A stretch of DNA of 64,000 nucleotides from Oxalobacteraceae bacterium CAVE-383. Lineage in GTDB: Bacteria; Pseudomonadota; Gammaproteobacteria; Burkholderiales; Burkholderiaceae_D. The notes below the pieces were generated by a model, which searched no databases, was not told where the DNA came from, and saw only the letters and a program-made list of their open reading frames with translations. Where the stretch lies: NCBI GenBank assembly GCA_004134995.1, contig REGP01000002.1:62001-126000 (forward strand). The letters run 5' to 3'. This document shows positions 171 to 55,200 of the stretch, piece by piece. Position numbers and translations under genes: made by a program. Numbering within the stretch: the stretch's first letter is position 1; the number at the start of each line of letters is the position of its first letter.

Positions 171-311
171 CTTTCAAGGCGCAGGGATTGTCGTTGTCGC
201 AAGGCTAGATGGTAGTAAATAACGAAACGGTTAGCTTGGTCGATTCGCCGTAAACTGAAAATAATTTTGCAGAATCACAAATAAAAATTTAAGTATTTAT
301 AGGAAATGATA

Positions 312-980
312 ATGACCAATGGCTTCATCTATGTTCTGCTGAATCCGTCAATTCCCAACATGGTCAAGATTGGACAAACCAAGACCACCTCTGAGAAGCG
401 TGCTCGCGCCATTTCATCCGCGACCGGAGTACCGACAGACTTTATTGTTCTTTACGATGCGTTGGTTAGCGACGTAGAGAAAGCCGAAGAAGAAATTCAT
501 ACACATTTTTCTGGTTATCGACCTAATAAAAGAAGGGAATTTTTTAATGTACCTCCGAAGTTAGCAATCCGTGCGTTGATAGATATTGCGCATAAATATC
601 CTATCGCTCCTGTTTTGCCTACGACTATCGATGATGTCCTACCAATGCTCAAATCGCGATTCCCTAAATTTCTTGACCCAAATATTTTCAGTGCCCGAAT
701 CATCACCATCCCAGGAGCATGTTATCTAAAGGTGGGTCGCATGCTCAATGGCCTAGAGGAATACTCGGAGGAGGAGCTCCCCCTGGACGGCCTTAAAACA
801 CCGGAAACAATTACTCCGGAAGTGGTTGAGTACAACGCTAAGTTGCTTGGGACTTTGAATGACTATGATTGGATCATGATCTCAAATATATTCCCTCAAA
901 ATATTGCTGTCGAGATAGCTAAGGAATGGGAAGGGCCCGGAGGAAAATTGGAAATTTGGAATAAGAATAAAGAGAAATAA
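312..980 (+). CDS. GIY-YIG nuclease-family protein (T5orf172 / MUG113 type)
   Basis: The first 90 residues look like the T5orf172 branch of the GIY-YIG endonuclease superfamily. GFIYVLLNPSIPNMVKIGQT carries the Y-V and K-I-G elements; an Arg follows in the first helix (EKRARAIS), then a conserved Glu region (EKAEEEIHTHF) and RREFFNV. These proteins are probable DNA nucleases, common in phages and mobile islands. The remaining 130 residues are not recognised. An ATG exists at 306, but the AGGA at 301-304 is spaced properly only for the ATG at 312, so the shorter start is chosen. The gene stands alone, with about 240 bases on its right that show no gene. The family is confident; the biological role is inferred from context. 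Confidence 0.75.
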   Translation: MTNGFIYVLLNPSIPNMVKIGQTKTTSEKRARAISSATGVPTDFIVLYDALVSDVEKAEEEIHTHFSGYRPNKRREFFNVPPKLAIRALIDIAHKYPIAPVLPTTIDDVLPMLKSRFPKFLDPNIFSARIITIPGACYLKVGRMLNGLEEYSEEELPLDGLKTPETITPEVVEYNAKLLGTLNDYDWIMISNIFPQNIAVEIAKEWEGPGGKLEIWNKNKEK

Positions 981-1936: not shown

Positions 1937-3010
1937 ATGACCGTTTTTTGTATCTTATTTGCGGATGTGAGTAAGGGAGAAAATCCAATAATAATCTCCG
2001 ATGTACTTGTGACTCATGATGTACGAAATTTAGCTCACGATCTTCGTTATGAGAAGGTATACATTCCTTCTTCTGGTGGAAGATTTCCTGAGCTACCCGG
2101 CGGTAAAGCTATTTCAGGGTTAATACAGAAAACGTATCTTGGAGAAAATTACGCTTTGGTATTTGCTGGCGACCTTTCGTCAGCACATGCGTTTTGGTCA
2201 GACATGCTGAAAATAAAAACACTTGAGGAATTTCTCCTGACGTGTCAGCTGTATAGATCAACTCTCCAGTTTGTGGCTATTACCACAATAGATGGGGAGT
2301 TAAATCGAGTCATTTTATGCGGCAGTGACGACTGTACACAATTTCAGCCCGGTGACTATGGGCGTGTCGTCATCGGCGGCTTTGGGGAGTCGTCTATTCG
2401 AGATTTATTGGTTCAGCAACAGGCGCTTTATTTCAAGGGAAGTGAAGATTTAAGCTCGATTGGGCGAGCGCTCTGTCTAGTTAGCGCGGCGTTGGAACTT
2501 GATGATAGTTCTCCAGAAAAAACTTTAAACAAACAGTTCGGCGCTTACTACGAAATTACTCTCTATGAGAATGGTGAATTCATAAAGCTGGAGCGGGTAT
2601 TGTTTTCGTTTTGGGAAATTACAATTGTTGATGATACTTTAATGTGGATTCCGACAAAAATGTTCTATCACGAGTACATAGACGGCATGTTAATCGTAAG
2701 GCGAATTACGATACCTCCTTATAAAGAAGAAAATTCAGGCATTTGGCAGGATTGTTATGGGATTAACAGCTTTGAACGAAGGCACTCGCACGATTTTCTT
2801 CGGACCCACATCTCCGAATTTGCGCCAGATCCGTGGATAGAAGTTGTCAACGCTAAGCTTTACAATCGAGATTTCAGATTCATATCGAGTAATCCAATTA
2901 TTCGATTTGAAAAAGATGGAGAAAAATGGAAAATCAATCCTGACTTCAATGAACTCAAAAAACACCAGGAGGCCGCTTCCGATGCCATGGAGGAAATGGA
3001 TAAGAAATAA
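1937..3010 (+). CDS. Unknown protein, possibly proteasome-like Ntn hydrolase
   Basis: The protein has 357 residues. Its N terminus, MTVFCILFADVSKGENP followed by IIISDVLVTHD, resembles the start of proteasome-beta/HslV-like domains: Thr immediately after Met, a strand, then an S-D-x-x strand. Later GGKAISGLIQKT and YALVFAGDLSSAHAF resemble the Gly-Lys and aGd elements of that fold. If correct, Thr2 would become the N-terminal nucleophile after Met removal. The second half (about residues 200-357) is unrecognised and may be a specificity domain. No clear Shine-Dalgarno sequence precedes the ATG. The gene sits in a defence-type island between a HEPN-like gene and the PIN-GNAT fusion. The fold call is tentative; that the gene is real is clear from its length and codon use. 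Confidence 0.5.
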   Translation: MTVFCILFADVSKGENPIIISDVLVTHDVRNLAHDLRYEKVYIPSSGGRFPELPGGKAISGLIQKTYLGENYALVFAGDLSSAHAFWSDMLKIKTLEEFLLTCQLYRSTLQFVAITTIDGELNRVILCGSDDCTQFQPGDYGRVVIGGFGESSIRDLLVQQQALYFKGSEDLSSIGRALCLVSAALELDDSSPEKTLNKQFGAYYEITLYENGEFIKLERVLFSFWEITIVDDTLMWIPTKMFYHEYIDGMLIVRRITIPPYKEENSGIWQDCYGINSFERRHSHDFLRTHISEFAPDPWIEVVNAKLYNRDFRFISSNPIIRFEKDGEKWKINPDFNELKKHQEAASDAMEEMDKK

Positions 3011-3095
3011 AATTATGGATATCTTTGTGAGCGTGAGATATTAGTCTGCAATATTAGAATATTAAATGTATCGAAGAACTTTTGGGGAGTCAGAA

Positions 3096-4586
3096 GTGCC
3101 GCAGCGCTTAAGATTCATATTGGATACTAATGTACTAATTCCGCTCCAAGATTCGTTCCAAGTTCTTGAGGGGAATTTGGCCAACTTTGTCCGATTAGCA
3201 ACTTTAGGGGGGCATCAGTTGATGTACCACCCGGCCAATGTCTCCGATTTCGAGCGTGACGCTAATACTGAGCGGCGGCAGCGTAATTTACAGCGCATAA
3301 AACAGTATCCTGCTCTATCCGATCCTGCACCTTGTATTTGGAACACTCCTGATACTAGTCCTAATGATGCCTGTGATAACGAGCTTCTATACGCGCTTCA
3401 CTGTGAGGCTGCTCATGCGCTGGTCACGGAAGATAAAGGTATACACGTTAAGGCGCGCTTACGTGGTTTAGCACATCGTGTTTACACCATTCAGACAGCA
3501 GAAGATTGGCTCAGACGACTCCATGAAACCCGGCAAATTATTCTGCCAAATATTCATAATGTCCCGCTTCATAGACTCACCCCCGAGTTATCTACATCTT
3601 TTTTTGACAGTCTGCGGCTCGGATACCCTGCGATTCAAGGTCGTGATGGCTTCGACGAATGGTTTCGCCAGAAAGCCCGTGAAGATCGACACGCGTGGGT
3701 GTATCGAGATGAACGTGACGTGTTGGCAGCAATATGTATTTACAAAATTCAAAGCGATGAGGTTCTGAATGATGCTGGAGATGTTCTTGGTGGCATCGCC
3801 CTAAAACTTTGCACTTTTAAGGTGGGTGAATCTGTGCGAGGACGTAAAGTCGGGGAGTTGTTCTTGAAAGCAGCATTCCGATTTGCAACAGAAAATAGTT
3901 GTGAACACATCTTTATCACGGCAGATGGTGAAGACCAGGATTATTTGATTCAGATGCTGAGGGACTTCGGCTTTGAAGAACGAGGCGTTTACCATGGTGA
4001 TGTAGTATTGGTAAAGTCACATCCAGCAGCAGAGCCCCCAATAGATGGAATAGTGCCGGCCGAATATGTCCGACGCTATTTTCCGCACTTTCGGTCGGAT
4101 GTAGAGGTGCAGAAATTCTTAGTACCAATTAAACCGCATTACCATGAAATACTTTTCCCGGACTATACCCCGGTTCAACCACGCCTCTTTGCTGCAACGG
4201 GCAGTGTAGGAAATGCTATCAAGCTTGCATATTTGTCTCATGCTCCGACCAAGTCGATACGTGCAGGAGATGTCTTATTGTTCTATCGTTCGGATGACGA
4301 GAAAGCGGTGACGTCCATAGGTGTGGTCGAGCAATTCGAAATTTCCGACGACGGCGCGCAGATCGCTAGTTTGGTCAGCCGTCGTACTGTCTATGGGATT
4401 GACGAAATTGACGTGTTGGCACAAAAGCCGACTAAGGTAATTTTGTTCCGACTTGTTGGACATTTTCCAGCTATCGTCCCATATGATCAGCTCATGTTTG
4501 ACGAAGTTGTGACGGGTCCAATTCAATCTATTCGTAAGGTTTCAGATGTCGCTTTTTCCAAAATCCTCGCCGCCTCCCAGCGGTAG
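3096..4586 (+). CDS. PIN-GNAT-EVE/PUA-like three-domain fusion protein
   Basis: Three domains can be read. Residues 1-145 look like a PIN ribonuclease: LDTNVLIPL supplies the first Asp, DNELLYALHCEAAHALVTED the later acids, and TEDKG the last. Residues about 175-310 look like a GNAT acetyltransferase (VGESVRGRKVGELFLKAA as the acetyl-CoA loop and helix, then LRDFGFEERG). Residues about 335-496 resemble an EVE/PUA-type modified-base or RNA-binding domain (RAGDVLLFYRS, then SIGVVEQ and VILFRLVGH). An ATG at 3066 is in frame, but GGGGAG at 3084-3089 is placed for the GTG at 3096, so that start is favoured. The 3' end overlaps the ASCH gene by 41 bases, implying coupled translation. PIN and GNAT calls are fairly good; the C-terminal domain call is inference. 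Confidence 0.7.
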   Translation: MPQRLRFILDTNVLIPLQDSFQVLEGNLANFVRLATLGGHQLMYHPANVSDFERDANTERRQRNLQRIKQYPALSDPAPCIWNTPDTSPNDACDNELLYALHCEAAHALVTEDKGIHVKARLRGLAHRVYTIQTAEDWLRRLHETRQIILPNIHNVPLHRLTPELSTSFFDSLRLGYPAIQGRDGFDEWFRQKAREDRHAWVYRDERDVLAAICIYKIQSDEVLNDAGDVLGGIALKLCTFKVGESVRGRKVGELFLKAAFRFATENSCEHIFITADGEDQDYLIQMLRDFGFEERGVYHGDVVLVKSHPAAEPPIDGIVPAEYVRRYFPHFRSDVEVQKFLVPIKPHYHEILFPDYTPVQPRLFAATGSVGNAIKLAYLSHAPTKSIRAGDVLLFYRSDDEKAVTSIGVVEQFEISDDGAQIASLVSRRTVYGIDEIDVLAQKPTKVILFRLVGHFPAIVPYDQLMFDEVVTGPIQSIRKVSDVAFSKILAASQR

Positions 4587-5013
4587 GATCGTTTTACTTT
4601 CTATAAAGCCGAAGTATGCTGAGCTAATACTGGCCGGCTCCAAACGGGTGGAATTTCGTCGCTCTTGGGCTGCGCAGGAAGTAACCAAGATAGTGCTTTA
4701 TTCAAGCTCTCCAATTCAAAAAATTGTTGGTATTGTCGAGGTGGAGGACGTGGTAACAGCTTCCGCAACGACCTTATGGAAAACATGTGTTGAGCGAGGT
4801 GGTGGTCTTACCAGAGAAGAACTTCGCAGCTATTTTTCGGGTAAATCGCAAGGATTTGGTTTGTTGCTGGGAAACGTGTTGGAGTTTGCGAATAGTATCG
4901 AGCCATCGGAAATAATCAAAAATTTTGTGCCCCCACAATCATTTAGATATCTGGACAATAGCGATTACATAAATCTAGAAAAATTTTTTGCGACGAAGAG
5001 CGAGAAGCAATGA
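4546..5013 (+). CDS. ASCH/PUA-superfamily protein
   Basis: This 155-residue protein carries the ASCH signature near its N terminus, LLSIKPKYAELILAGSKRVE followed by FRR. A beta-barrel core follows (VTKIVLYSSSPIQKIVGIVE). ASCH domains belong to the PUA superfamily and bind RNA or nucleotides; some are amidohydrolases. An AAGG at 4536-4539 precedes the ATG by six bases. The gene starts inside the end of the PIN-GNAT fusion and its own stop overlaps the ATG of the next gene (ATGA type), so the three genes are one operon. The fusion's C-terminal EVE/PUA-like domain and this ASCH domain are probably two readers for related substrates. The family is confident, the substrate unknown. Confidence 0.75.
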   Translation: MSLFPKSSPPPSGRIVLLSIKPKYAELILAGSKRVEFRRSWAAQEVTKIVLYSSSPIQKIVGIVEVEDVVTASATTLWKTCVERGGGLTREELRSYFSGKSQGFGLLLGNVLEFANSIEPSEIIKNFVPPQSFRYLDNSDYINLEKFFATKSEKQ

Positions 5014-5546
5014 CCTTATTTGTTGGTGGCGTTCATGCTGTCGGTAAGACTTTTGCGTTAAAAACGGCGTGTGAAGACCTTGGTTTGAGACATCTAACCG
5101 CAAGTCAACTTATCAAGGAGCAGCGCGGTTTATCAAATTGGACCGCCACACGACAAGTTGATGACATTGATGAGAATCAAAATGCATTGGTCGCGGCTGT
5201 TAGACGCTTAGAACGAGGTGGAGAAATCCTCGTTCTCGATGGGCACTTTGTGCTGCGTAAAACTTTAGGTGTTCATGAAAAAATCGGTATGGAGATATTT
5301 TCTCAGATTAACGTGCAAGGAATTATTTTATTAGAAGCTCCTATTGAACTTGTAGTAGATCGGCTTCGTCAACGAGGTGATGAAACTTGGGAGCCATCGG
5401 AAGTCGAGCTCTTTGCACAAAGAGAATTGGAGCATGCGGAAGCAGTTTCTAAAATACTGGGTGTCAGACTTTTGAAACTGCTAACTCCCTCGAAAGCGGA
5501 GGTTAAAGAGGCACTTCATAATCTTATGTCTGGATCGCTGATTTGA
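5010..5546 (+). CDS. P-loop kinase-like ATPase, archaeal adenylate-kinase-like
   Basis: The 178-residue protein opens with a Walker A motif, GGVHAVGKTF (residues 6-15). A Walker B-like ILVLDGHFVL follows, then a strand GIILLEAP and a lid-type helix VVDRLRQRGDETWEPS. This layout resembles archaeal-type adenylate kinases and related small nucleotide or RNA kinases. It starts at the ATG that overlaps the ASCH stop by four bases and closes the three-gene operon. Possible roles are nucleotide phosphorylation, RNA end repair, or ATP-dependent control of the PIN nuclease; the sequence does not decide. No membrane segment or signal peptide is seen. About 85 bases without a gene separate it from the HEPN gene downstream. 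Confidence 0.7.
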   Translation: MTLFVGGVHAVGKTFALKTACEDLGLRHLTASQLIKEQRGLSNWTATRQVDDIDENQNALVAAVRRLERGGEILVLDGHFVLRKTLGVHEKIGMEIFSQINVQGIILLEAPIELVVDRLRQRGDETWEPSEVELFAQRELEHAEAVSKILGVRLLKLLTPSKAEVKEALHNLMSGSLI

Positions 5547-5630: not shown

Positions 5631-6986
5631 ATGAAGTTAAAAGCGGTTCTTTTGCATCAGCAAGCCAATATGAGTGCCAATCTCATTTGGGGGCCGCCCC
5701 TCACTTCTGAATCGAAACAGCAGTTAGTCGAATCATTAGAGGATTTACGAAAAAAGGAGTATTGGGCGAGTCCCTTCCCCGAAGGAGATGGAATAACCTT
5801 TTCGCATAAAACATATGAATCGGATAGCGCATTGCGCGATTTGATAACGTGTTTTGAATGGTTGGAAATTATTGTTCCTTCTCATAGTGCCGATGAGGCC
5901 ATTGGCCAACTTCACGCTGGCAGAAAGGTTCGTGTCCGATATCTCGTGCCGGCCGATAAATTGCTTCAGTGGCCAGCACTCATTCAGTTAGGGCCATATA
6001 AAATTCACCGGCCCGTCGTGCCAGGTGAAAGACCCGCTATCGATCATCCTTGGCACGAATATTTGCTTGATATTGCCGGAGCGGACGTAGATCCAGATTG
6101 GGATCCACAGTCTGCGCCTCTTGGAACGTTGGCTAGATTATTAGCTTATCCGTTGATCGAAGGTGAAACAGATGTCGATGGGCGTTTATTGTTTCCCGTA
6201 GGCGCGGGAACCGCGGAAGATGAGCTGCTCGTTCTCCAAATTACAGATCACGCGGACAGAGTGCTCGATATACTTCGGCATAATTATTGTCACTATAAAA
6301 TCCCTCACTACACACCAAACCAAGCGGGAGTTCTATCGGATTGGGGATTTCGAGCAGCATTCGTCATGCCGGATGCGGCAGATATTCCAGAGCGTCTTGT
6401 AGTGGCGAAGGGACAAGTATTTGAAGCAAATAATGTTTGGCTAGGCCTGGAAATAGACTCGCATCCTGGTTGCGAGGCAAGTCAGATGGCGACGATTGCT
6501 GCCGGTATTGTTGCGAATGTAGTTGAAGAAAGGGCGCGTGCAGCGCTACGGATGCGAGGGCAATCGTTTTTTCTTCTTAATGATGAAATGAAATTTCTCT
6601 CCTTGGTTTTTTCCGCAGATGCCTGCGCGTTAGTAGAAAAGAAAACGGGACTAGCACAGCGTCTGCACGTTGCTGCTTTTGCTAGTTTTGGAAGAAAAGA
6701 AAACTTTGAGGAACATTTACAGGTTTTCAAAAAGTTATACAAGTTTCGCAATGGCATCGTACATCAAGGAAAGAGTTTTGGTGAGCTCGGAATTACCGCA
6801 AAAGAATGTTTGATCATGATGGACAACATTCTATGTTGCTGCATAGATGCCGCGATACGGGAAGGATGGACTACGAAGGCGGAGGTAAAGCATGCGATTG
6901 ATGCCCGCCTCTTATCATTCGGAGTGCCAACCTTAACACCTGGCGAAGATGTGGATGAGGAAACAGGTCCTTCGTTAAATATTTAA
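5631..6986 (+). CDS. HEPN-domain protein with intact RNase motif (Apea-like)
   Basis: The protein has 451 residues. The C-terminal third is helical and contains F-R-N-G-I-V-H at residues 372-378, a canonical HEPN R-N-x3-H motif of the type that cleaves RNA in toxins and defence effectors. The segment around it (KKLYKFRNGIVHQG, then ECLIMMDNILC) matches Apea-like HEPN proteins. The first 270 residues are a mixed alpha/beta region without a recognised motif and may be the sensor. GGGGGAC five bases before ATG 5631 supports the start. A second gene begins 26 bases downstream, so the two may form a pair. The HEPN call is good; target and trigger are unknown. Confidence 0.65.
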   Translation: MKLKAVLLHQQANMSANLIWGPPLTSESKQQLVESLEDLRKKEYWASPFPEGDGITFSHKTYESDSALRDLITCFEWLEIIVPSHSADEAIGQLHAGRKVRVRYLVPADKLLQWPALIQLGPYKIHRPVVPGERPAIDHPWHEYLLDIAGADVDPDWDPQSAPLGTLARLLAYPLIEGETDVDGRLLFPVGAGTAEDELLVLQITDHADRVLDILRHNYCHYKIPHYTPNQAGVLSDWGFRAAFVMPDAADIPERLVVAKGQVFEANNVWLGLEIDSHPGCEASQMATIAAGIVANVVEERARAALRMRGQSFFLLNDEMKFLSLVFSADACALVEKKTGLAQRLHVAAFASFGRKENFEEHLQVFKKLYKFRNGIVHQGKSFGELGITAKECLIMMDNILCCCIDAAIREGWTTKAEVKHAIDARLLSFGVPTLTPGEDVDEETGPSLNI

Positions 6987-7012
6987 AGAGCTTGGTCATT
7001 TGGGGTGACGTA

Positions 7013-8065
7013 GTGGTAGACCAAAAATACGACGATATGATGGCTCATTATTTCGCGGACCTGAAAGAGCAGTCCAGCAAAAGGCTGGCTGAAGCGGGCG
7101 ATCTGATTGCGAAGTTCACGACAATAGCGGCATCTAAGGGCCTTATCCTCAGCGCGGACTCATTTGAGTATATTCAGACCACTGGAATCGTTGCTAAGGC
7201 ACAGAACATCGCCAGGACACTATTGGGACCTATAAGGGCCGAACGAGACGGCCTGCTGCCATTCAACGAGATTGCGAGTCGATTTCCGCCTAGCCCCCAT
7301 TACGAAGGGTGCTTTGCCGGACCCGACTTTATCTTGATGGCCCATCCCTGTTATCGGCGCGGAATGCACCCAATCAACAACTGGGCTCCGAGGTTTATAG
7401 ATCTGTTCTGGCGGTTCGACGGCCCCGGTATAGAAAGATACATTGCTCTCGACGAAGATCGGGTTCGGATCGATGTCGATGGTCCGGGCTATTTCGAGGG
7501 AGACACTTGGCACGGCGCTCCATTTAACGAAGACATACAAAATATCAAATCTGGAATCGTCAAGCTCCGCCCACCCCTTGATCTGGAGTCTCGGCATGTC
7601 TCATTCTTCTTCGCCGACGCATACTGCGTAGATATAAAGTGGAGCGAATCGGATGGAATCAAGTCGTTTCAGGCGCTCGAAATAAAGACGGAGAAGATTA
7701 GTATTGAGATCGGCGGTCAATCTTATTTCCCCGCCCGCTACTTACATGCCGAATTCGATCTCGCAGCTAATTGTTTCAGACACTTCGACGGAGCGATCCA
7801 GTATTTTACGGAAGAAGAGTATTTTCAGAGGCGAGATGCCGACTTCAATATGACGATGAAGAACCATGCGCACGTCAAGGCCAGTTCGAGCAAGGTCTTC
7901 AAGATCAATGGTCCGCTCAAAACGGAAGACTGGGTTGAGCTATGCTGCCACTTCTATACAGCCAATCCACTTACCTTCGAGTATTTCAGCGGCGAGTATC
8001 CGAAGCATGTCGTTGAAACGCTCGCAAAGATCCGAAACCACGCATCGAAACTCGATGGCGAGTAA
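7013..8065 (+). CDS. Unidentified 350-residue protein
   Basis: I do not recognise the family. The protein is soluble, rich in aromatic residues and acids, with a helical N terminus (FADLKEQSSKRLAEAGDLI) and a beta-rich middle (RIDVDGPGYFEGDTWHG, then HVSFFFADAYCVDIKW). No nuclease, kinase or membrane motif is evident. The frame opens at a TTG (6992), but GGGGTGA at 7001-7007 is positioned for the GTG at 7013, which is preferred. It follows the HEPN gene by 26 bases on the same strand, so it could be its partner. Its codon use is clearly GC-richer than both neighbours, suggesting a different origin. It converges with the channel gene downstream. Confidence 0.6.
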   Translation: MVDQKYDDMMAHYFADLKEQSSKRLAEAGDLIAKFTTIAASKGLILSADSFEYIQTTGIVAKAQNIARTLLGPIRAERDGLLPFNEIASRFPPSPHYEGCFAGPDFILMAHPCYRRGMHPINNWAPRFIDLFWRFDGPGIERYIALDEDRVRIDVDGPGYFEGDTWHGAPFNEDIQNIKSGIVKLRPPLDLESRHVSFFFADAYCVDIKWSESDGIKSFQALEIKTEKISIEIGGQSYFPARYLHAEFDLAANCFRHFDGAIQYFTEEEYFQRRDADFNMTMKNHAHVKASSSKVFKINGPLKTEDWVELCCHFYTANPLTFEYFSGEYPKHVVETLAKIRNHASKLDGE

Positions 8066-8109: not shown

Positions 8110-8955
8110 TTAATTACGGTGTTGTTTAACGATTGGCTTTGTCAATTTCTGGCGAATTTCATATGAAATTCTCTTAACTATTTCTGCATAATCCCCACCA
8201 TTCTTATAGGGATGAGTTGTGTAACGTGTGTGAGCTAGAAATTCTTCTCGAAAGCTATCTATTTCGTCACAGAGTCTTGTGAGGATCATATGGGTTCGAT
8301 GCGTGTGCCATTCCACTTTTTTGTCGACTAGAAGATTCAAGAGTTTTCGTATAAATCCTGAAAGTTCTTCAACATGATGAGCCGCTCGCTCTATTCGCAA
8401 TAGCAAATCTTTTTGTTTGCCAATTTCAACTACATGCGCGGTATATCCATTTAGGACTTCCATCGCTCGCATTGCAGGATAAAATGGGTTTCCTCGATAA
8501 TATAAAAAATCCACAGAGGAAATGGGGAGCCGAGCTTGTATCAGCCTGCGCTGATCGCCTATGAGCTCTTTTGCATCGGTTATGCCAGTTAAGCAAATAT
8601 CATAGGTCTGAGTTATTCGGTCGTTAGCTAAATATTCGATTAAAGCTTCCTGTTTTGATGAAACAACTTGGGATATCGAATAGCCGACAAAAAATAAGCC
8701 AAATAAAACTTCTATAGCAGATATCCCTTTTGACCAACCGTAAGGGGTGATGTCACCATAGCCTAGAGTAGATATGGTAACTATGCTGAAGTAAATGCAA
8801 TCCGCATAAGATGTGATCGAGCGAAGGGATGTTTTTAATCCGTCTTCAGTTGGTCCAAGTTTGAAGTAAAGGAAAGCGAATCCTAGAATTGCGATGATTA
8901 ATATTGTTGCTAATTTACAGATAAGACGTAATTGATTTTTTTGGTTTGTATTCAT
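8110..8955 (-). CDS. Two-TM potassium-channel-like protein (Ion_trans_2)
   Basis: The N-terminal 110 residues contain a first membrane helix (LATILIIAILGFAFLYF), a pore helix with selectivity filter STLGYGDITP, and a second membrane helix (AIEVLFGLFFVGYSISQV). This is the minimal K+ channel plan. The remaining 170 residues are soluble, helical and charged, and lack an obvious RCK/TrkA-N Rossmann motif, so gating is unknown. GTG 8967 is in frame, but GGGGAAG immediately precedes ATG 8955, so that start is chosen. The gene converges with the unknown gene at 7013-8065 and lies 240 bases beyond the helicase on the same strand. Channel-type effectors occur in some membrane-acting immune systems; a defence role here is only inference. 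Confidence 0.8.
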   Translation of the reverse strand: MNTNQKNQLRLICKLATILIIAILGFAFLYFKLGPTEDGLKTSLRSITSYADCIYFSIVTISTLGYGDITPYGWSKGISAIEVLFGLFFVGYSISQVVSSKQEALIEYLANDRITQTYDICLTGITDAKELIGDQRRLIQARLPISSVDFLYYRGNPFYPAMRAMEVLNGYTAHVVEIGKQKDLLLRIERAAHHVEELSGFIRKLLNLLVDKKVEWHTHRTHMILTRLCDEIDSFREEFLAHTRYTTHPYKNGGDYAEIVKRISYEIRQKLTKPIVKQHRN

Positions 8956-9198
8956 CTGCTTCCCCACGGATTGTCTTTGGCCATTTCTTTATGTTTTCCC
9001 TAGCGTTGAGGATGATGTCCGACATAGAGTCGTCTGTCAGTAAATATTTAAAAAGCCATTTAGATCATCGTTTGGAAAGTATTGGGCGAGTCGGTATGCA
9101 ATTGACCCATGTGGTGTTGTAAAAGCTAATAAAAAATAAGACCTTAAGAAGAGATGCATTGCGTCTGTATGCAAAAACATCGGCTGAGAGTTGAACCA

Positions 9199-10287
9199 CT
9201 ATGCTATCGGCGATAGGGGCATCGACCAATATGGCAGACAAGAGTTTCCCGGTTTATCTAAGACGAGAGCAACACTTTGCTTTGCGCGTGTAACTGCAAC
9301 GTAAAAACTTGCTGCGGGATTCGGCTCAAGCGAAACCCCGTTTTGTATAAACGCAATAATTGGTTTGGTTGGCACTATCAGGACGCGTTCGTGCGTCGAG
9401 CCTTTCGCGAGTTTAAAATTTAAAAAATCTAGATTGAAATTTTTTCCAGAACTAGCGGAATGACGTAAGCATTTTGGACTATACCGCTCGACATACGCGT
9501 CAACATCTTTTGTCATTAGAAGAAAAACTCCATCATGATCCGAAGTAGCCTCGTTTTTTGATTCTGTGGCAGGAAAATTCCAATCGGCATTAAAAATAGT
9601 ATCGGAAAATTTTGCAATTTCGGCATGACAGCGCCAGGTAATTGCGCTTTCTTCAATTTCTAGAATTCCTTTTTTCTCGCGCTCTCTGAACCAATGGATC
9701 GCCTCAGCGTAGGCGTATTTATTATTCTTTCTGCTACGTGCATTCGTAGATAGTACGGATTGCCGAATATCCCCTACCATCGTAATGTCGATGCTTGTCT
9801 CGAAGAGAGCATCAATGATTTCCCAATCATGACTACTTAAATCTTGTACCTCATCAATAAAAATTTCGTCATATAAACATTGCAATCTATGAAATAAAGT
9901 CCCGGCGCTTTGTTTAATTAGTTCATGAGAAAGTCTGGCGAGTTCGCAAGCATAGGCGCAGTCATGAGAGTCAAAGAATCGTTTGTAGCCAGATGCCATC
10001 ATGTTCGGACGGCCTTCAAAGTTAAATCCTTTAACTCGCTTATTTGGAAATTTAAATGGTAAAAACGGCTTAGCAAAATGCCGTAGTAAAAATGTATACC
10101 ACCCCATCACCTCAACATATTGGTGATCGCCGGCATAAATAGATAGACGATCGCATAATTCGATTTGGTTTTGTTGCGTAAACGTCAAAATCAAAGCTCG
10201 CCGATTGCTAGGCAAGCTAGCGCAATGATCAACGATACCTTGAGTTTTGCGTGAACCTGCAACAGCAAGGGTTAGCTTGTTAGTCAT
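9199..10287 (-). CDS. Short UvrD-like SF1 helicase, GajB-type
   Basis: SF1 helicase motifs are in order: a Walker A-like AVAGSRKTQG, motif Ia TFTQQNQIEL, motif II FIDEVQDLSS, motif III MVGDIRQSV, motif IV TWRCHAEIAKF, motif V KLAKGSTHERV and motif VI FYVAVTRAKQSV. At 362 residues it lacks the large 1B/2B insertions of full UvrD/Rep and resembles the helicase partner of class 2 OLD nucleases, as in Gabija GajB. Walker A has Arg where most members have Gly (GSRKT rather than GSGKT). TTG 10308 is in frame, but ATG 10287 overlaps the end of the upstream OLD gene and suggests translational coupling. It probably acts with that nuclease in anti-phage defence. Confidence 0.8.
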   Translation of the reverse strand: MTNKLTLAVAGSRKTQGIVDHCASLPSNRRALILTFTQQNQIELCDRLSIYAGDHQYVEVMGWYTFLLRHFAKPFLPFKFPNKRVKGFNFEGRPNMMASGYKRFFDSHDCAYACELARLSHELIKQSAGTLFHRLQCLYDEIFIDEVQDLSSHDWEIIDALFETSIDITMVGDIRQSVLSTNARSRKNNKYAYAEAIHWFREREKKGILEIEESAITWRCHAEIAKFSDTIFNADWNFPATESKNEATSDHDGVFLLMTKDVDAYVERYSPKCLRHSASSGKNFNLDFLNFKLAKGSTHERVLIVPTKPIIAFIQNGVSLEPNPAASFYVAVTRAKQSVALVLDKPGNSCLPYWSMPLSPIA

Positions 10288-11890
10288 GAATAAAATTGGC
10301 GGCTTCAAGCATGTATTGAGGCGGTGTAATTTTTTGTTCAGACATCGCGATACGTAACGCCGCCTCTGTCTTTTCCCGCTTCATCCATTTAGTTAAATCT
10401 ACGGCATCCTTTATGCCCAATATCATTCGAATTAATTTTTCGTCGTTGTGATTTACGATTTGAGGCTCCAGCGTTGTCCCGCGCTCTATGCTTCCTATAA
10501 AAAGTGCTCTTCTACCGGCAGCTAAATATTTACCAACAGGTTCCCGTAATTCAGATGGATCAATGCCGTCATTATCTCGAAGTACTGCGACTTTTTTGTT
10601 GAGTGCGCTGCAGAGTTCAAGGCAACGATTTAATGGCAAACCCCTCATGCTAAGAACGTCAATACCGAATTCCATGGGGGATTTCCCGTGAGCATCTTTA
10701 AATACTCGTTCAAAAATAATTTCATCTGACGGGCCTTCCACTAGAACGATTTTCGATGAGAGCGCCATCCGTAGAGTGTCGTAGCCGGACAGTTTCTGAA
10801 AGTAACTAACGGTTTCTGGGGTAAGTTGTGAAATTTTGGCTACCGAGTCGTGTTCGATCAATAGCAATGCGTCCAGTCCCAGGCGATTTAATACGAAAGC
10901 ACTGTGGGTTGTTATGAAAAGCTGTTGTTGATCACTTGCGAGCGAGTTGATTCTAGATAAAAGTGTGGTCAGACTCGTGTGCGAAAGGTGATTTTCAGGC
11001 TCTTCGATCATTACGAAGTTGGCAGTCCCGTTTTGTCGCGCCATAGCAAGAGATATTTTTATTGCGGCCTGTTGGCCTTGGCCTGACATGGAAAATGGCA
11101 CGGCATCAACATGTGGCGTGACCACTCCTTCCCATGAGGTGCGGGAGCTCTGGTCCATCGCTAGCGTAATGGGTTGGCTATGCAAGGAAGCATGAAGGTC
11201 TCCAATACGTTTATTCACGTCCACAAGAGCAGTATTTGACATCTCTGCTTTTACGTTCCGATACGCTAAGGATATATCTGCTCGTTCGGAAGGCGCCAAA
11301 TGATCATTAATAATTTGGCGAAGGTGATAATCCATACCGAATGGAGAACGAACGGTTCGCGAATCAATAATTGCGGTAACCAACTGTCGTGGCCTGGCGG
11401 TCAGTTTTACGTCGGCAAATGAACGCCAATCTACTTGGTAGTATTCAATAGGTAACAAGGCAGTCGGTTCGATAATCCATTTATCGAGTTCAGGAGCGTA
11501 TTCTGGATTCGGCACTATATGTAGGCCGACGCCTGGACAGGCAATAGTAGGAACGTCACTATTAATTGCGCCGCACAGCGACTGTAGTTCATCGCTATTT
11601 TCCAAAAAAAGCTCGATATGGATTTCAGGCAATGCTACTTGCTTGCCATCTTTTCGGTTTTGCAGAAAATCTGAGACTAACGTTGCATTGAACCAATATG
11701 GATTCAATTCTTCTTGGGCGCTTTTGCCATGAATTCGCCCAGTCAGCGCCAGTACGATTGCTTCCATTAATGTAGACTTTCCAGCTTCATTACCTCCTAC
11801 GATGATATTCATCTTTGGATTTGGTTTTAGCTCGAAGTCTCTGTGGATTCGGTAGCCCTTAATTTTTATTTTAGTTATCAATTTTTGCAA
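10280..11890 (-). CDS. OLD-family nuclease with ABC-ATPase and TOPRIM domains, GajA-type
   Basis: The 536-residue protein has an SMC/ABC-type ATPase: Walker A IIVGGNEAGKSTLMEA, signature SMSGQGQQAAIKISLAMA, Walker B FVMIEEPENHLS and the switch His in LFITTHSAFVL. A C-terminal TOPRIM domain follows, with LVEGPSDEIIFERV for the catalytic Glu and VAVLRDNDG for the D-x-D. This is the class 2 OLD arrangement, which pairs with a UvrD helicase gene as found here; the pair matches Gabija. The start is TTG, at 11890 or 11881; neither has a strong Shine-Dalgarno sequence. The gene is first in a two-gene operon reading leftwards, divergent from the DUF4238 gene. The family is confident; activity of this pair against phage is inferred. 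Confidence 0.85.
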   Translation of the reverse strand: MQKLITKIKIKGYRIHRDFELKPNPKMNIIVGGNEAGKSTLMEAIVLALTGRIHGKSAQEELNPYWFNATLVSDFLQNRKDGKQVALPEIHIELFLENSDELQSLCGAINSDVPTIACPGVGLHIVPNPEYAPELDKWIIEPTALLPIEYYQVDWRSFADVKLTARPRQLVTAIIDSRTVRSPFGMDYHLRQIINDHLAPSERADISLAYRNVKAEMSNTALVDVNKRIGDLHASLHSQPITLAMDQSSRTSWEGVVTPHVDAVPFSMSGQGQQAAIKISLAMARQNGTANFVMIEEPENHLSHTSLTTLLSRINSLASDQQQLFITTHSAFVLNRLGLDALLLIEHDSVAKISQLTPETVSYFQKLSGYDTLRMALSSKIVLVEGPSDEIIFERVFKDAHGKSPMEFGIDVLSMRGLPLNRCLELCSALNKKVAVLRDNDGIDPSELREPVGKYLAAGRRALFIGSIERGTTLEPQIVNHNDEKLIRMILGIKDAVDLTKWMKREKTEAALRIAMSEQKITPPQYMLEAANFIHD

Positions 11891-13006: not shown

Positions 13007-13094
13007 TCTGTGAGAATTCCAGCCGGGATCGATTCTCACAGACATGAAAAAATCCTTTAAAAACAACGGCTCGATTTTTCACCTTCTGTGAGAA
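13007..13094. repeat. Three copies of TTCTGTGAGAA at the island edge
   Basis: TCTGTGAGAAT at 13007-13017 and its exact reverse complement ATTCTCACAGA at 13032-13042 form an 11-base perfect inverted repeat with a 14-base spacer. A third copy, TCTGTGAGAA, lies at 13085-13094. The core TTCTGTGAGAA is itself partly palindromic (TTCT-GTG-AGAA). The cluster lies in the intergenic gap where composition changes from the AT-rich island to the GC-rich core. It could be a recombinase core site or an operator. No integrase gene is seen in the window, so function is undecided. Confidence 0.5.
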
Positions 13095-13141
13095 CCTACA
13101 ATTTGTCCGGAAGGCGCAGAAATTTGTGCCGCGGATAATTG

Positions 13142-49264: not shown

Positions 49265-52200
49265 ATGCGCCATACACCTATTTTTGGACGGGTTTCCCGT
49301 GCCATTGCCGGCTCCTCCTTATCTGCTGCTTTGCTGCTTTGCGCGGGATTCGGGTTTTCCACGCAGGCGCATGCGGCGCTCGGGGTATCGATGACGACCG
49401 CGCCCGGCGCGCCGAATCCGATCAACCCGGGCGACACCACCACGTTCCGGATCATCCTGACCAACAGCAGCACGGCGGCCGATGTGACCGGCGTCGGCTT
49501 CGCCGACACCATGGACGCGCGGCTGTTCGTGGTCGATCCGGTGGCGGTCGCATCCTGCCTGGACGGCAACGGCGGCACGGTGGCTTCCAGCGCGACGGTG
49601 ATCGCACCGCTGCGCGGCAATACCATCACCGTCTCCGGCGAAACCGTGCCGAAGGCGGTTGGCGGCGTCAGCGGCCTTTGCACCATCGATGTCAAAGTGA
49701 CTTCGGTGGCCAATAACCAGGCGCCGGTCAATACGATCGGGGTCGGCGACGTCACCGGCACGGAAAGCGGCAGCACGATCAGCAACGGCACGCTGGCGTC
49801 GCAGTCGATCACGGTGAACAACCTGAACGTGCCGACCATCGACAAGAGCTTCTCGCCAAGCACCATCGTGCGCGGCGACCAGCCGACCACGCTGACCATT
49901 CACATCAATAATCCGAATTCGGTGAATCTGCCGTTGAACGACGCCACCGACGTGAATGCATTCGCGATTCAGGACAGCCTGCAGGGCGGCCTGCAGGTGG
50001 CGCCGACGCCGAACGCAAGCGTCAGCTGCCCGGGCGGCGTCAATCCGGCATTCGCGCCGGCGGCCGGCGCCACCGCCATCAGCGCGGTCGGCGGCGCCGT
50101 CGGCCCGAACGCCAGTTGTACGTTGAAAGTGGACGTCATCGGCACCAGCACCGCGGGCGTCTTCTCGTCGGGCATGCCGAATACCATCTCGAGAACAGCG
50201 GATTTCTTCAACAAGCGCGGACTGGTTCCGCCAAGCGACGCAAGCGCCACCCTGACCGTCAATTCGCTGCTGCGCGTGACCAAGACATTCGATAACGATC
50301 CGCTGCGCGCCGGCCAGGCGACCACCATGACAATCAAGCTGATCAACGGCGGTTCCGCGACGTCGATGTCGAACATCAGTTTTACCGACAGCCCGATCGA
50401 CGGTCTCGCCGGCGCCCGCCTGACCGTATCCGGCGCGCCGACGCTGACCGCCTGCGGCGGCGGCAGCGCCACGCCGACCGCCGCCAATGCCGGCATCAGC
50501 GCATCCGGCATCGGCATCGCCCCGGGCGCGACCTGTACCATCGTCGTGCCCTACACCGCCACGCTGGCCACGCCGGGCGTGCCGCAGACGTTTACCAATA
50601 CCATCGCGGAAGGTTCGATCACCGTCGGCAGCGACAACACCATCAAGAATCAGCAAGCGGCCGCCACCGTGACCGTGGTCGACCAGGTCACGGTGCAAAA
50701 GACCGCGTCGCCGCTGATCGTCGCGCCGGGCAACGGCGTGAAATACACGCTGACCGTGAACAACTTTTCGCCGTCGCCGCTGGACGGCCTGAAAGTGCCG
50801 GATCAATTGCCGGGAGGCCTGGTGGCGATGCCGACGCTGCCGGCGGCGCCGCAAATCACCGGCGGCACGTGTACCGGCCTGACGTCCGACTTCTCAGTGC
50901 CCGGCAAGCCGGTATTTACGATCGGCAGCTTCCCGCCGACCAGTAGCGCGGTCGCATCGAGCTGCCAGATTACCTTCTGGGCGATGGTGCCCACCAACGC
51001 GGCCAATAATGTGGCCTTGCAGAACACCATTGCCGCGGGCGACGTGCAGATCGGCGCCGGCCCGGGGCTGAATCACGATCAGTCCAATACCGTGACCTCG
51101 ACCACCTCCACTTCGGTGGTGGCCTTGAGCAAATCGTTTACGCCGTCGTCCGCATTCGAAGGCACGGTGTCGATCCTGAAAATCCGCATCACGAACATCA
51201 CCGGCAATGCATTCACCGCCTCCACGCTGACCGATAACCTGCCGCTGGCCAACGCCGGCAGCACCGGCCAGATGGTGATCGCCAATCCGGCCGACGCATC
51301 GACCACCTGCGTGGGCGCGACGGTGACCGCGCCGGCCGGCGGTACGCAGCTCAAATTGACGAATGCGACGATACTGGGACGTACCGGCAACGGCACCGGT
51401 CCCGACGGCTTCTGCGATGTGCTGGTGAAAATCATCGCGCCTCCCGGCACCTATGACAATGTCCTGCCGCCCGGCGCATTCTCCGGCACCCAGACCTTCG
51501 CCGACAACAGCACAGCGCCGATCAGCAATATCGGCACCGTGACCCAAAGCATGGTCTACAACTCGGCGCTGGTGCCCGCCAAATCCTTCCTGCCGGCCAC
51601 CATCACACCCGGCGGCAGGTCGACCGTGCGCGTGAACCTGACCAATATCGGCACCGCCGCGCTGACCAATGTCGCCGTCACCGATCCGCTGCCGGCCAAC
51701 ATGAAAGTGGCGACGCCGTCCAATACCTACACCACCTGCAGCGGCACGCCGGTGCTCACCGCCGTGCCCGACGCGACGTCGGCTTCGGCGTCGGGCCTGA
51801 TCGTTCCGCCCACGGGCGCCTGCGATTTCCTGTTCGACATCACCGGTTCCGGCACTGCGGGATGGACCAATACCATTCCCGCCGGCAACGTGACCGCCGC
51901 CAACGGCGTCAAGAACATCACCGCCATCTCGGCAAACCTGGCCAACAGCAATTCGGCCGCGTTGAACGTCACCAATGGCACTTCGCCGGCGACCCTGTCG
52001 GCGCCGGGCCAGGTCAGCGTGCTGACCGTCACCATCACCAACAACGGCACGCTCGACCTGAGCAATGTGTCGCTGAACAACTATTTCACCAACAACGGCC
52101 TGGCCACCGGCGCCGCGACCGGCATGCAGGTCGCCGCCACGCCCGGCCTGTCCACCACATGCCCGGGCGGCATCGTCAGCTCCGCCGCGGACGGTTCCAG

Positions 52201-55200
52201 CGTCAGCCTGAGCAACGCCACGCTGGCGCACGGCGCCAGCTGCACGGTCACGGCCAACATCACGCTGACCACCGCCAACACCGTGCAGGACACCATTCCG
52301 ATCGGCGCTGTGAAAACGGCAGAAGGCATCTCCAATACCACCGCTACCGTCAGCAGCCTGAATGCGGGCGGCAACATCGGCGTGACCAAGAGCTTCAATC
52401 CTGCCGTGATTGCGCCCGGCGGGCGCAGCAGAATGCGCCTGACCTTTATCAATCCGGTCGCCATTTCGCTGGCCGGCCTGAGCGTGGTCGACGATTTCCC
52501 GGCCAGCGGCATCAGCGTCGCGGCCAGCAACCCGAATGCGCTGACAACCTGTACCGGCGCTGCATTCACCGCGCCCCCCGGCGCCACTTCGGTGGGCATG
52601 ACCGGCGGATCGCTGCCGGCCGCGGTCGCGGGCGTATCGTCCACCTGTTTTGCCGAAGTCGACGTCACGGCGACCGCCGTGGGCCCGCATACCAATACCA
52701 TTCTCGCGCATGACGTGGACGGCACCATCGGCGGCGGCAGCGTCGACAATCCGGTGCCGGCCTCGGCGATCCTGAACGTGCGCACGCCGGTGGTCATCGC
52801 CAAGTCGTTCAATCCGACCAGCGTGCAGCCGAGCGTGCCGTCGACCGTCACCATCACGCTGACCAACCCCAACGCCATCGCGTTGACCGGCGCCAGCTTC
52901 ATCGACAATCTGCCGGCCAACCTGGTCGTGGCGCAGACGCCGGCGGCATCGATGTCTTGCCCAAGCGGCGTCGCGGGTTCGGTGACGGCGGCCGTATCGG
53001 CGACGTCGGTCACCGTGGCCGGCGCCACCATCGCGGCCAACGGCGCCTGTACCGTGACCTTCAAGGTGGTCAGCAACATCGCCGCCACCTACACCAATAC
53101 GATTCCGGCGGGCGGCCTGACCACTGTCGAAGGCGTCACCAACAGCACGCCGGCCACGGCCACGCTGAGCCTGCTGGATCCGCCGACCGTCGCCAAGCAG
53201 TTCGTGCCGGTATCGATCGCTTCCGGCAACATCTCGACCCTGACCATCGTGCTCGGCAACACCAACGCGACACCGGTCACCCTGAGCGCCGACCTGGTCG
53301 ATACGCTGCCGACCGTGCCCGGCAATATCGTGGTCGCGGCGGCGCCGAATATCGCCGGCAGCACTTGCACGCAGGGCAACATTGTCGCAACGGCCGGCGG
53401 CGCAACCGTGACGTATAAAAACGGCGCGACCATTCCGGCCGGCGGCTGCACCATCGTCGTCGACGTGACCGGTACCGTGGTCGGCAACTACAACAACTTC
53501 ATTCCGGCCGGCGACCTGAAGACCAATACCGGCAACAATCCGCAGCCGGCCACCGCCAATCTGACGATCAGCCCGCTGGGTTCGATTTCGGGCCGCGTGT
53601 TCAAGGACAACAGCGTGGTGCCGGACGGCATTTTCAATGGCACGGACGCCGGGATCGCCAACGTCGCGATTCATTTGCAGGGCGCCGAAACGGTCGGCGG
53701 CGCGATCATCTCGGCCGATGCCGTTACCGATGCGCTGGGCAACTATGCATTCACCGGTTTGAATGCGGGTACATATACCGTATCTGAACCGGCCCAGCCT
53801 ACCGGCACCGTCAACGGCATTACCACCGCCGGCGCGGTCAGCGGCCCCGGCGGCGGCAGCAGCGGCGCTGTCACGGCGGTAACGACAACGCCAAGCCTCA
53901 TTTCCAATATCGTGCTGGGCAATGGCGCCGGCACCGTATCGGTCTCGCCGAACAACAATTTCGCCGAAGTGGTGCGCTCATCCATCGCCGGCAATGTGTT
54001 CCTGGACCAGGACAACAGCGGCACGAAAGACGCCGCCGATACGCCGCTGGCCAGCGTGACGATCCAACTGCTCAAGGGCGGCTCGGTGGTTGCCACGACA
54101 ACGACCGATGCGAGCGGCGCCTACGCGTTCCCGAATCTGGATCCGGGCACCTACACCCTGCGCGAACCGACCCAGCCGCCGAGCACCGTCAACGGCAAGA
54201 CCGTGCCGGGCACGGTCGGCAACGGCGGCAGCGCCGGCACCGCCACGCTGCCGACGGTCACGCCAAGCCAGATCGCCAGCATCATCCTGCCGCCGAACAC
54301 CGCAGCCACCGCGTTCAATTTCGCCGAACTGACGAGCGGCCGCCAGATCTCGGGCCGCGTCTACAACGATGTCGACGGCAACCACCTGTTCGACAATACG
54401 GATACCGGCATCGCCAACATCGTGGTGAACCTGAGCGGCACCGACGTCAACGGCCAGCCGGTGACGGCGACCACGACCACCGGCCCCGACGGCCGCTATA
54501 TCTTCACCGGCCTGGTCGAAGGCACCTATACCGTGACCGAGCCGACCCAGCCGCCGCACACCACCGACGGCACCACCAATGTGGGCACCGCCGGCGGTAC
54601 CGCGACGCCATTGGGCACGACGCCGTCGAAGATCATGACCATTCCGCTGACCGGCGCCACGATCAGCTCGACCGACAACAACTTCGGCGAAACGCCGATC
54701 CTGATCGGCACGGTATCGGGCAAGGTCTATATCGACGCCAACAACAACGGCATCATCGATGCCGGCGAGCTGGGTGTGAACACCACGCCCGGCGTGTCGA
54801 TCACGCTCTCCGGCACCCAGGCCGACAACGTGACGCCGTTCACCCAGACCGTGCAGACCCTGGCCGACGGCAGCTACAGCTTCCCGAACGTGCCGATCAG
54901 TAATACGACCGGCTACACCATCACCGAAATCCAGCCGGCGTTCTACAAGGACGGCAAGACCACGGTGGCTCCCGGCAACCCCGGCACGGCATCGTCGGGC
55001 AAACCGGTCTCGGCCAACAACACCGACGTTATCCGCGGCGTGGTGGTGCAGGGCGGCGATGTGCTGCCGAACTACAACTTCGGCGAACTGCCGAATATCG
55101 CACTCGGCCTGATTCCGCCTATCGTCAACGGCTACGTGTATCTGGACAAGGACCACGACCGCACCCGCGACAACGACGGCACCTCGATCGGCCAGCCCGG

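What the first reader, a model, noticed from the sequence alone, without database searches (positions are those of the whole stretch)
3096..5546. Coupled PIN-GNAT-EVE/PUA fusion, ASCH protein and adenylate-kinase-like ATPase: candidate new defence or RNA-modification system
Seen: three overlapping genes (41-base and 4-base overlaps). The first fuses a PIN-like nuclease with a GNAT and a PUA/EVE-like domain; the second is ASCH; the third a small P-loop kinase. Known: PIN cleaves RNA, GNAT acetylates (for example charged tRNA), and EVE/ASCH read modified bases or RNA. Inference: an RNA-targeting immune module that senses modified nucleotides. I know of no described system with this exact set.
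Basis: partly seen in the sequence, partly recalled or inferred. Interest (0 to 1): 0.8.

Follow-up and report, generated by a model that had tools for sequence, protein, structure and literature searches.

The report
Known, untested toxin-like defence operon
Three overlapping bacterial genes make up a widespread but, as far as I could find, experimentally untested RNA-cutting and acetylating module that earlier surveys had already predicted to be a virus-defence or toxin-antitoxin system; here it rides as cargo on a jumping DNA element.

Summary
Genes A (PIN-GNAT-PUA/EVE), B (ASCH) and C (adenylate-kinase-like) lie at 3066/3096-5546 with 41- and 4-base overlaps. GNAT and PUA/ASCH folds, catalytic-residue conservation and co-occurrence hold up; PIN rests on sequence only. 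The novelty claim is wrong: PADLOC lists A and B as candidate PDC-M11, and Bell, Wolf and Koonin 2020 describe (PIN)-GNAT-EVE operons with ASCH and often AAA_17, predicted toxin-antitoxin systems near type I restriction systems. I found no experimental test in the papers searched. Seen here: B adjoins A in 93 of 94 complete loci and C in 57 of 94, in several orders, with eight B-C fusions. B is close to the ssRNA-cleaving ZmASCH (1e-32), C to archaeal-type adenylate kinases. A phage record calls relatives of A and B 'GevT toxin' and 'GevA antitoxin'. The module is cargo of a 23.8-kb Tn7-like transposon beside the likely gyrB, with Gabija. Most likely it is a toxin-antitoxin-type defence acting on RNA; the mechanism is inferred.

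The parts
3066..4586 (+). Gene A, PIN-GNAT-PUA/EVE fusion, PDC-M11A (506 aa from ATG 3066; 496 aa from 3096)
3096..3530 (+). PIN-like part of A (about residues 1-145 of 496); acidic residues D10, D94, D113
   Evidence: PIN_3 in 13 of 78 aligned A proteins, not in the window's own; fold not confirmed by fold search
3531..4049 (+). GNAT part of A (about residues 146-318)
   Evidence: Z 15.6 to 6tgx_B over residues 151-310
4050..4583 (+). PUA/EVE/ASCH-like part of A (about residues 319-496)
   Evidence: Z 15.6 to ZmASCH 5y6b_D over residues 338-495
4546..5013 (+). Gene B, ASCH protein, PDC-M11B
5010..5546 (+). Gene C, AAA_17, archaeal-type adenylate-kinase-like P-loop protein
13078..13100 (-). 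Right terminal inverted repeat of the Tn7-like transposon carrying the module (left end is outside the window, at L125:9262)
13101..13105 (.). 5-bp target-site duplication; the same 5 bp precede the left end

Best explanation
The three genes are a member of the known, uncharacterised (PIN)-GNAT-EVE / ASCH / AAA_17 family (PADLOC candidate PDC-M11), carried as defence cargo on a Tn7-like transposon. Most likely it works as a toxin-antitoxin-type, growth-arrest defence. A is the toxin: its PUA/EVE domain docks on a particular RNA (most likely tRNA, perhaps a modified one), the GNAT acetylates it or its charged amino acid, and the PIN domain cuts RNA. B, an ASCH protein with a conserved single-stranded-RNA cleft, restrains A by holding or shielding the RNA or by binding A. 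C is an accessory adenylate-kinase-like protein that works with B and may set the restraint by nucleotide state. Shown: gene set, domains, conserved catalytic residues, co-inheritance, B-C fusions, defence setting. Inferred: toxicity, the RNA target, B as antitoxin, C as regulator, phage protection.
For: Identity: PDC-M11A/B. Published operon with the same three families. B next to A in 93 of 94 and C in 57 of 94 complete loci, in orders ABC, BAC, CAB, CBA and AB/BA. Eight B-C fusions. Distances of A-B, A-C and B-C correlate (Mantel r 0.76, 0.81, 0.79 on 71, 45 and 57 loci; 0 of 2000 permutations reach them; host relatedness not removed). Of eight other window genes tested by tblastn at 1e-5, only the GIY-YIG gene recurs, in 1 of 123 loci. 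PIN acidic residues kept in 77-78 of 78; P-loop G, G and K in 57 of 57. B profile matches ZmASCH at 1.2e-32; that protein binds nucleic acids and weakly cuts ssRNA, and the residues that line up (by eye) with its Arg32, Tyr47, Trp73, Tyr90 and Gln127 are kept in 99 of 99, with Ser128 in 96 of 99. Relatives are labelled GevT toxin / GevA antitoxin in PV340567 and match PDC-M11A/B. Defence setting: single type I methyltransferase models match up to 6 of 109 flanking ORFs and none of 112 control ORFs; Gabija in the same transposon. GNAT toxins acetylate aminoacyl-tRNA (PMC9177977, start of abstract in the listing, passage).
Against: No experiment was found. 'GevT toxin' is a depositor's label with no paper found. 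ZmASCH RNase activity is described as weak, and the position of its Lys53 is mostly Q, K, G or R in this family, so B may not cut. One locus (L155) has B and C beside a PDC-S37 helicase-nuclease and no A in the 8 kb read, which a plain antitoxin would not need. C is missing from 37 of 94 complete loci. Five loci show a broken A with a B hit (L006 and its copy L033, L031, L035, L054, L065), as expected for a toxin, but A is over three times longer and sequencing errors are possible, so this asymmetry proves nothing. Type I RM neighbours would also fit a nucleic-acid modification role.
Confidence: 0.5

Rival explanations
1. A modification module: the GNAT acetylates a base in DNA or RNA that the EVE and ASCH domains read, marking self or invader for the neighbouring restriction systems. 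Acetylation of a DNA base is the proposal of Iyer et al. 2013, seen only as cited by Bell et al.
For: Type I methyltransferase and specificity models match flanking ORFs. In L064 the ASCH hit lies in a far longer frame (2348-4048); Bell et al. report ASCH fused to HsdS in Methanohalophilus.
Against: A PIN domain with its acidic residues in the same chain and the ssRNA-cleft residues of B point to RNA. No restriction-modification enzyme matched in the scanned window genes or is annotated beside the phage PhiR47_2 pair; other phage loci were not scanned for this.
Confidence: 0.2
2. The PIN-bearing form is an anti-toxin: it destroys acetylated tRNAs made by GNAT-EVE proteins of phages (Bell et al. 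2020).
For: 24 of the 36 viral-contig loci match only from about residue 150 on, that is without PIN. Five genome loci carry both forms (L045 and its near-copy L063, L082, L084, L086). The share of PIN forms in the genome list says nothing, because that list is ranked by likeness to a PIN-bearing query.
Against: The conserved GNAT P-loop and the same ASCH partner in both forms are not needed for a degrader. 12 of the 36 viral-contig loci match from near the start of A, that is with PIN.
Confidence: 0.1
3. B is an eraser: an ASCH amidohydrolase like YqfB that removes the acetyl group put on by A's GNAT.
For: An acetyltransferase is paired with the superfamily that contains the N4-acetylcytidine amidohydrolase YqfB. 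Lys and Arg of the shared motif are invariant (99 of 99).
Against: The position of YqfB's essential nucleophile Thr24 is Glu in 99 of 99 B proteins (the two motifs were lined up by eye, the YqfB motif partly from recall). The best structure match is ZmASCH; YqfB (1te7) is not among the 8 rows or the 50 rows shown.
Confidence: 0.06
4. An RNA-repair or housekeeping RNA-metabolism operon that merely sits in variable islands.
For: [quoted passage not shown]
Against: Patchy (6 of 274 genomes of the class, own genome included); found in a transposon, plasmids (18 records with at least 80% of A covered) and viral contigs; restriction genes beside some copies.
Confidence: 0.05

Closest known systems
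(PIN)-GNAT-EVE / ASCH / AAA_17 operons (Bell, Wolf and Koonin 2020, PMC7641849, passages; described earlier by Iyer et al. 2013, not held)
   Same: Same domain fusion, same partner families, same defence setting
   Different: Nothing in kind; this copy lies in a Tn7-like transposon, and B-C fusions were found here; neither is in the passages seen
PADLOC phage-defence candidate PDC-M11
   Same: A and B match at 5e-139 and 5e-57
   Different: Gene C matches no PADLOC model at E 0.01
GevT/GevA of Escherichia phage PhiR47_2 (PV340567)
   Same: Overlapping GNAT-EVE + ASCH pair, PDC-M11A/B
   Different: No PIN, and no kinase hit in the stretch read
ZmASCH of Zymomonas mobilis (5GUQ/5GUS, PMC5615036)
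   Same: Closest solved relative of B (E 1e-32); most cleft residues kept
   Different: Lys53 position variable; its own gene neighbours were not reached here
Archaeal-type adenylate kinase (6PJW, 3H86, 1NKS)
   Same: Fold, P-loop, D-x-H and arginines of C
   Different: About 20% identity; linked or fused to ASCH; substrate unknown
Type II GNAT toxins with DUF1778 antitoxins (PMC9177977)
   Same: GNAT catalytic domain in a candidate toxin-antitoxin pair
   Different: Partner is ASCH; extra PIN and EVE domains

Membership tests
PDC-M11 / (PIN)-GNAT-EVE + ASCH operon | GNAT fused to a C-terminal EVE/PUA-like domain | tested here: met
PDC-M11 / (PIN)-GNAT-EVE + ASCH operon | N-terminal PIN domain (PIN subtype) | tested here: met
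   Full-length PDC-M11A model covers residues 16-505; acidic residues kept; PIN_3 in 13 of 78 aligned A proteins but not in the window's own; fold search inconclusive for this part
PDC-M11 / (PIN)-GNAT-EVE + ASCH operon | adjacent ASCH gene | tested here: met
PDC-M11 / (PIN)-GNAT-EVE + ASCH operon | often an AAA_17 gene | tested here: met
   57 of 94 complete loci
PDC-M11 / (PIN)-GNAT-EVE + ASCH operon | anti-phage activity | not testable with these tools
   needs phage challenge
Toxin-antitoxin system | A toxic alone, neutralised by B | not testable with these tools
   only a depositor's label in PV340567
ssRNA-cleaving ASCH (ZmASCH) | cleft residues Tyr47, Ser128 and Lys53 | tested here: inconclusive
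   Tyr 99 of 99, Ser 96 of 99; Lys53 position Q 36, K 24, G 19, R 11 of 99
YqfB amidohydrolase | Thr-Lys-Glu triad with Thr24 nucleophile | tested here: not met
   Glu at the Thr24 position in 99 of 99, motifs lined up by eye
Archaeal-type adenylate kinase | fold and P-loop | tested here: met
   Z 21.1, 2.1 A over 168 residues to 6pjw_A for the L038 B-C fusion; P-loop G, G and K 57 of 57; the window's own C was not modelled
Archaeal-type adenylate kinase | phosphorylates AMP | not testable with these tools
   needs assay
Tn7-like transposon (the carrier) | TnsA, TnsB, TnsC and TniQ genes, terminal inverted repeats, 5-bp target duplication | tested here: met

The most novel reading that the evidence does not exclude
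B and C (in eight loci one fused protein) are not a plain antitoxin but a detachable sensor: an RNA-reading ASCH tied to an adenylate-kinase-like nucleotide switch, used to control different effectors. The effector is PIN-GNAT-EVE or GNAT-EVE in nearly all loci seen and a DUF4011 helicase-nuclease (PDC-S37) in one, L155.
Probability: 0.12. Interest if true: 0.65.

Novelty: new member of a known kind. Interest (0 to 1): 0.35.

Why it matters
Loci come from several bacterial phyla, archaea, viral contigs and plasmids (record titles), yet I found no experiment on the family. The data here narrow what to test: RNA rather than DNA as first target, B as RNA-binding partner, and B-C as one functional unit. 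This copy, on a transposon with Gabija and in a small three-gene form, is a convenient one to clone.

Tried and rejected
Novelty of the set: rejected. YqfB-like deacetylase antitoxin: the nucleophile is missing. Larger operon: of eight other window genes only the GIY-YIG gene recurs, in 1 of 123 loci. The one sequence match of the A profile to a solved chain in the PIN region is weak (3ix7_A, E 0.061; I recall it as a PIN protein, the listing calls it uncharacterized). Broken A with a B hit: five cases, proves nothing given gene lengths and possible errors. Zymomonas neighbourhood of ZmASCH: no Zymomonas name among the 15 of 35 plasmid records listed, and best identities of 34-38%, so not reached. 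Literature: 'PDC-M11' 0 papers; 'GNAT-EVE'/'PIN-GNAT' only Bell et al.; 'GevT' with 'antitoxin' 0 (one search returned unrelated words); the four-term EVE/toxin-antitoxin search 0. Two surveys that hold the domain words (PMC12839542, 12 of 15 places shown; PMC10853773, 5 of 5) do not describe this set in the passages seen. The library lacks preprints and most subscription papers.

Of 125 loci (window included), 113 remained after 95% de-duplication of A; 19 near contig ends were set aside and 94 counted as complete (at least 700 bases before and 1300 after A). L006 and L054 are counted as 'no PIN' although their PIN part lies in other frames. Starts were picked by script. In the flank test, ORFs were called by a simple longest-frame rule, ORFs under 150 or over 1400 aa were left out, at most seven per locus were taken, and 16 of 20 locus pairs were used because of the residue cap (109 and 112 ORFs). 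Searches give counts per model, not per locus; one search shows 25 of its 141 models, all 15. Of the eight loci found from B, one (L148, genome G292) had already been found from A (L083). mad2 models matched 6 flanking and 1 control ORF.

Full report
WHAT IS THERE. One search confirms three same-strand overlapping genes: A 3066/3096-4586, B 4546-5013, C 5010-5546 (overlaps of 41 and 4 bases). Pfam finds Acetyltransf_1 in A, ASCH in B and AAA_17 in C. PADLOC finds PDC-M11A in A (5e-139) and PDC-M11B in B (5e-57), and nothing in C at E 0.01. NCBIfam has no model above its cut-off for any of the three.

DOMAINS AND ACTIVE SITES. The AlphaFold2 model of the window's A from 78 sequences has mean pLDDT 92.3 and pTM 0.83. 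VIA-align places residues 151-310 with plant NAA60 (Z 15.6, 2.6 A, 147 residues) and residues 338-495 with ZmASCH (Z 15.6, 2.3 A, 136 residues). The C-terminal PUA-like domain of A therefore has the same kind of fold as B. The PIN part rests on sequence: PIN_3 in 13 of 78 aligned A proteins, the window's own not among them, D10 in 77 of 78, and D94 and D113 in 78 of 78. The GNAT P-loop reads R-G-x-K-x-G-E, with both G and E in 78 of 78, K in 74 and R in 65.

GENE B. The profile of 99 B proteins matches ZmASCH (5GUS/5GUQ) at 1.2e-32. That protein binds nucleic acids and weakly cuts single-stranded RNA (abstract, part 1 of 3 of section 11, and sections 15 and 16 read). With the motifs lined up by eye, its Arg32, Tyr47, Trp73, Tyr90 and Gln127 correspond to residues invariant in 99 of 99 B proteins and Ser128 to one kept in 96 of 99, while its Lys53 position varies. 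The position of the YqfB nucleophile Thr24 (passages) is Glu in 99 of 99.

GENE C. The profile of 57 C proteins matches archaeal adenylate kinases (1NKS 1.7e-13, 1KI9 7e-13; the top row, 9cm0 at 3e-18, is a designed nanoparticle). A natural B-C fusion from L038 was modelled (pLDDT 94.8): residues 143-313 match 6PJW at Z 21.1 and residues 2-137 match ZmASCH at Z 18.6. The window's own B and C were not modelled.

CO-OCCURRENCE. Relatives of A were taken from the window's class (6 of 274 genomes, own included), genome contigs (80 loci kept of 529), viral contigs (36 loci) and two phage records. With profiles for A, B and C, 113 loci remain after de-duplication and 94 are complete. B is next to A in 93; the exception is L112, with a partial A in a 308-kb viral contig. 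C is present in 57. Orders where A's best piece holds PIN: ABC 27, AB 22, BAC 12, A(BC fused) 5, BA 3, BAC with C reversed 2, CAB 2, CBA 1. Otherwise: AB 11, ABC 6, A(BC) 1, CAB 1. Eight of the 113 loci carry B-C fusions; six of these are complete. Distances among A, B and C correlate (r 0.76-0.81; relatedness of the hosts not removed). Eight other window genes were tested; only the GIY-YIG gene recurs, in 1 of 123 loci. In each of 20 genomes holding the module, the PDC-M11B model has exactly one match at 1e-5. Starting from B instead (ZmASCH stretch, 10 of 385 genomes of a second class, 8 loci read), five have a strong A beside it (one of them, G292, already found from A), two a divergent relative (729 aa in the one read in full), and one (L149/L155) has B-C beside a PDC-S37 helicase-nuclease without A in the 8 kb read.

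SETTING. The window's first 13 kb have G+C 0.40-0.51, against 0.58-0.69 from 15 to 24 kb. Upstream (L125) lie tnsA-, tnsB-, tnsC/tniB- and tniQ-like genes, after dnaA, dnaN and an 865-codon frame that I read as gyrB from its place and sequence, not from a database call. Near-identical terminal repeats at L125:9262 and window 13100 are flanked by the same five bases. The element is therefore about 23.8 kb, inserted just after that frame, and carries Gabija (PADLOC GajA 1e-212, GajB 3e-139) besides this module. Tn7-like elements often carry defence genes (PMC8649781, passages). Elsewhere, single type I methyltransferase models match up to 6 and specificity models up to 4 of 109 flanking ORFs, and none of 112 ORFs from distant parts of the same contigs (141 against 15 PADLOC models at 1e-20).

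WHAT IS KNOWN. [quoted passage not shown] PDC names are PADLOC phage-defence candidates (PMC11514479, passages); a 2026 survey says several came from guilt-by-embedding and that validation is pending for most in its core set (PMC12988326, passages). The phage record PV340567 names a PDC-M11A/B pair GevT toxin and GevA antitoxin; no paper was found. That pair occurs, at 99% identity or more, in 274 of 5426 E. coli genomes.

MECHANISM. The best reading is a toxin-antitoxin-type defence on RNA (0.5), with A as effector, B as its RNA-binding restraint and C as a nucleotide-linked helper of B. The B-C fusions support a B-C unit. L155 hints that this unit can serve another effector, which is the most novel reading (0.12).

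Noticed in passing
L125:9262 to window 13100: Complete-looking Tn7-like transposon (about 23.8 kb) just after the likely gyrB next to dnaA-dnaN, with a 5-bp duplication; the word gyrB does not occur in the main text of the Tn7 cargo survey PMC8649781.
   Followed up: partly
window 9199-11890: Gabija pair (GajB, GajA) in the same transposon.
   Followed up: partly
window 306-980: GIY-YIG/T5orf172 protein, PADLOC PDC-S57; a 38%-identical relative also lies near the module in viral contig L087.
   Followed up: no
window 5631-8065: Two closely spaced genes after the module with no confident family; the first has a weak HEPN_Apea match (0.11). Possibly a separate defence pair.
   Followed up: no
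window 8110-8967: Ion-channel-like protein (Ion_trans_2, 3e-13) next to Gabija; could be another effector.
   Followed up: no
L155:1546-7799: ASCH + adenylate-kinase-like pair directly beside a 1597-aa DUF4011 helicase with an MTES_1575 nuclease (PDC-S37), without gene A; a small GNAT is convergent.
   Followed up: partly
L156:3689-6314: Variant 729-aa protein with N-terminal GNAT and a PDC-M11A-like C-terminus, followed by an ASCH gene.
   Followed up: partly
L045, L063, L082, L084, L086: A PIN-less GNAT-EVE gene lies near the PIN-bearing one in the same locus.
   Followed up: no
window 49265-61515: Two very long consecutive open frames (2551 and 1532 aa), not examined.
   Followed up: no
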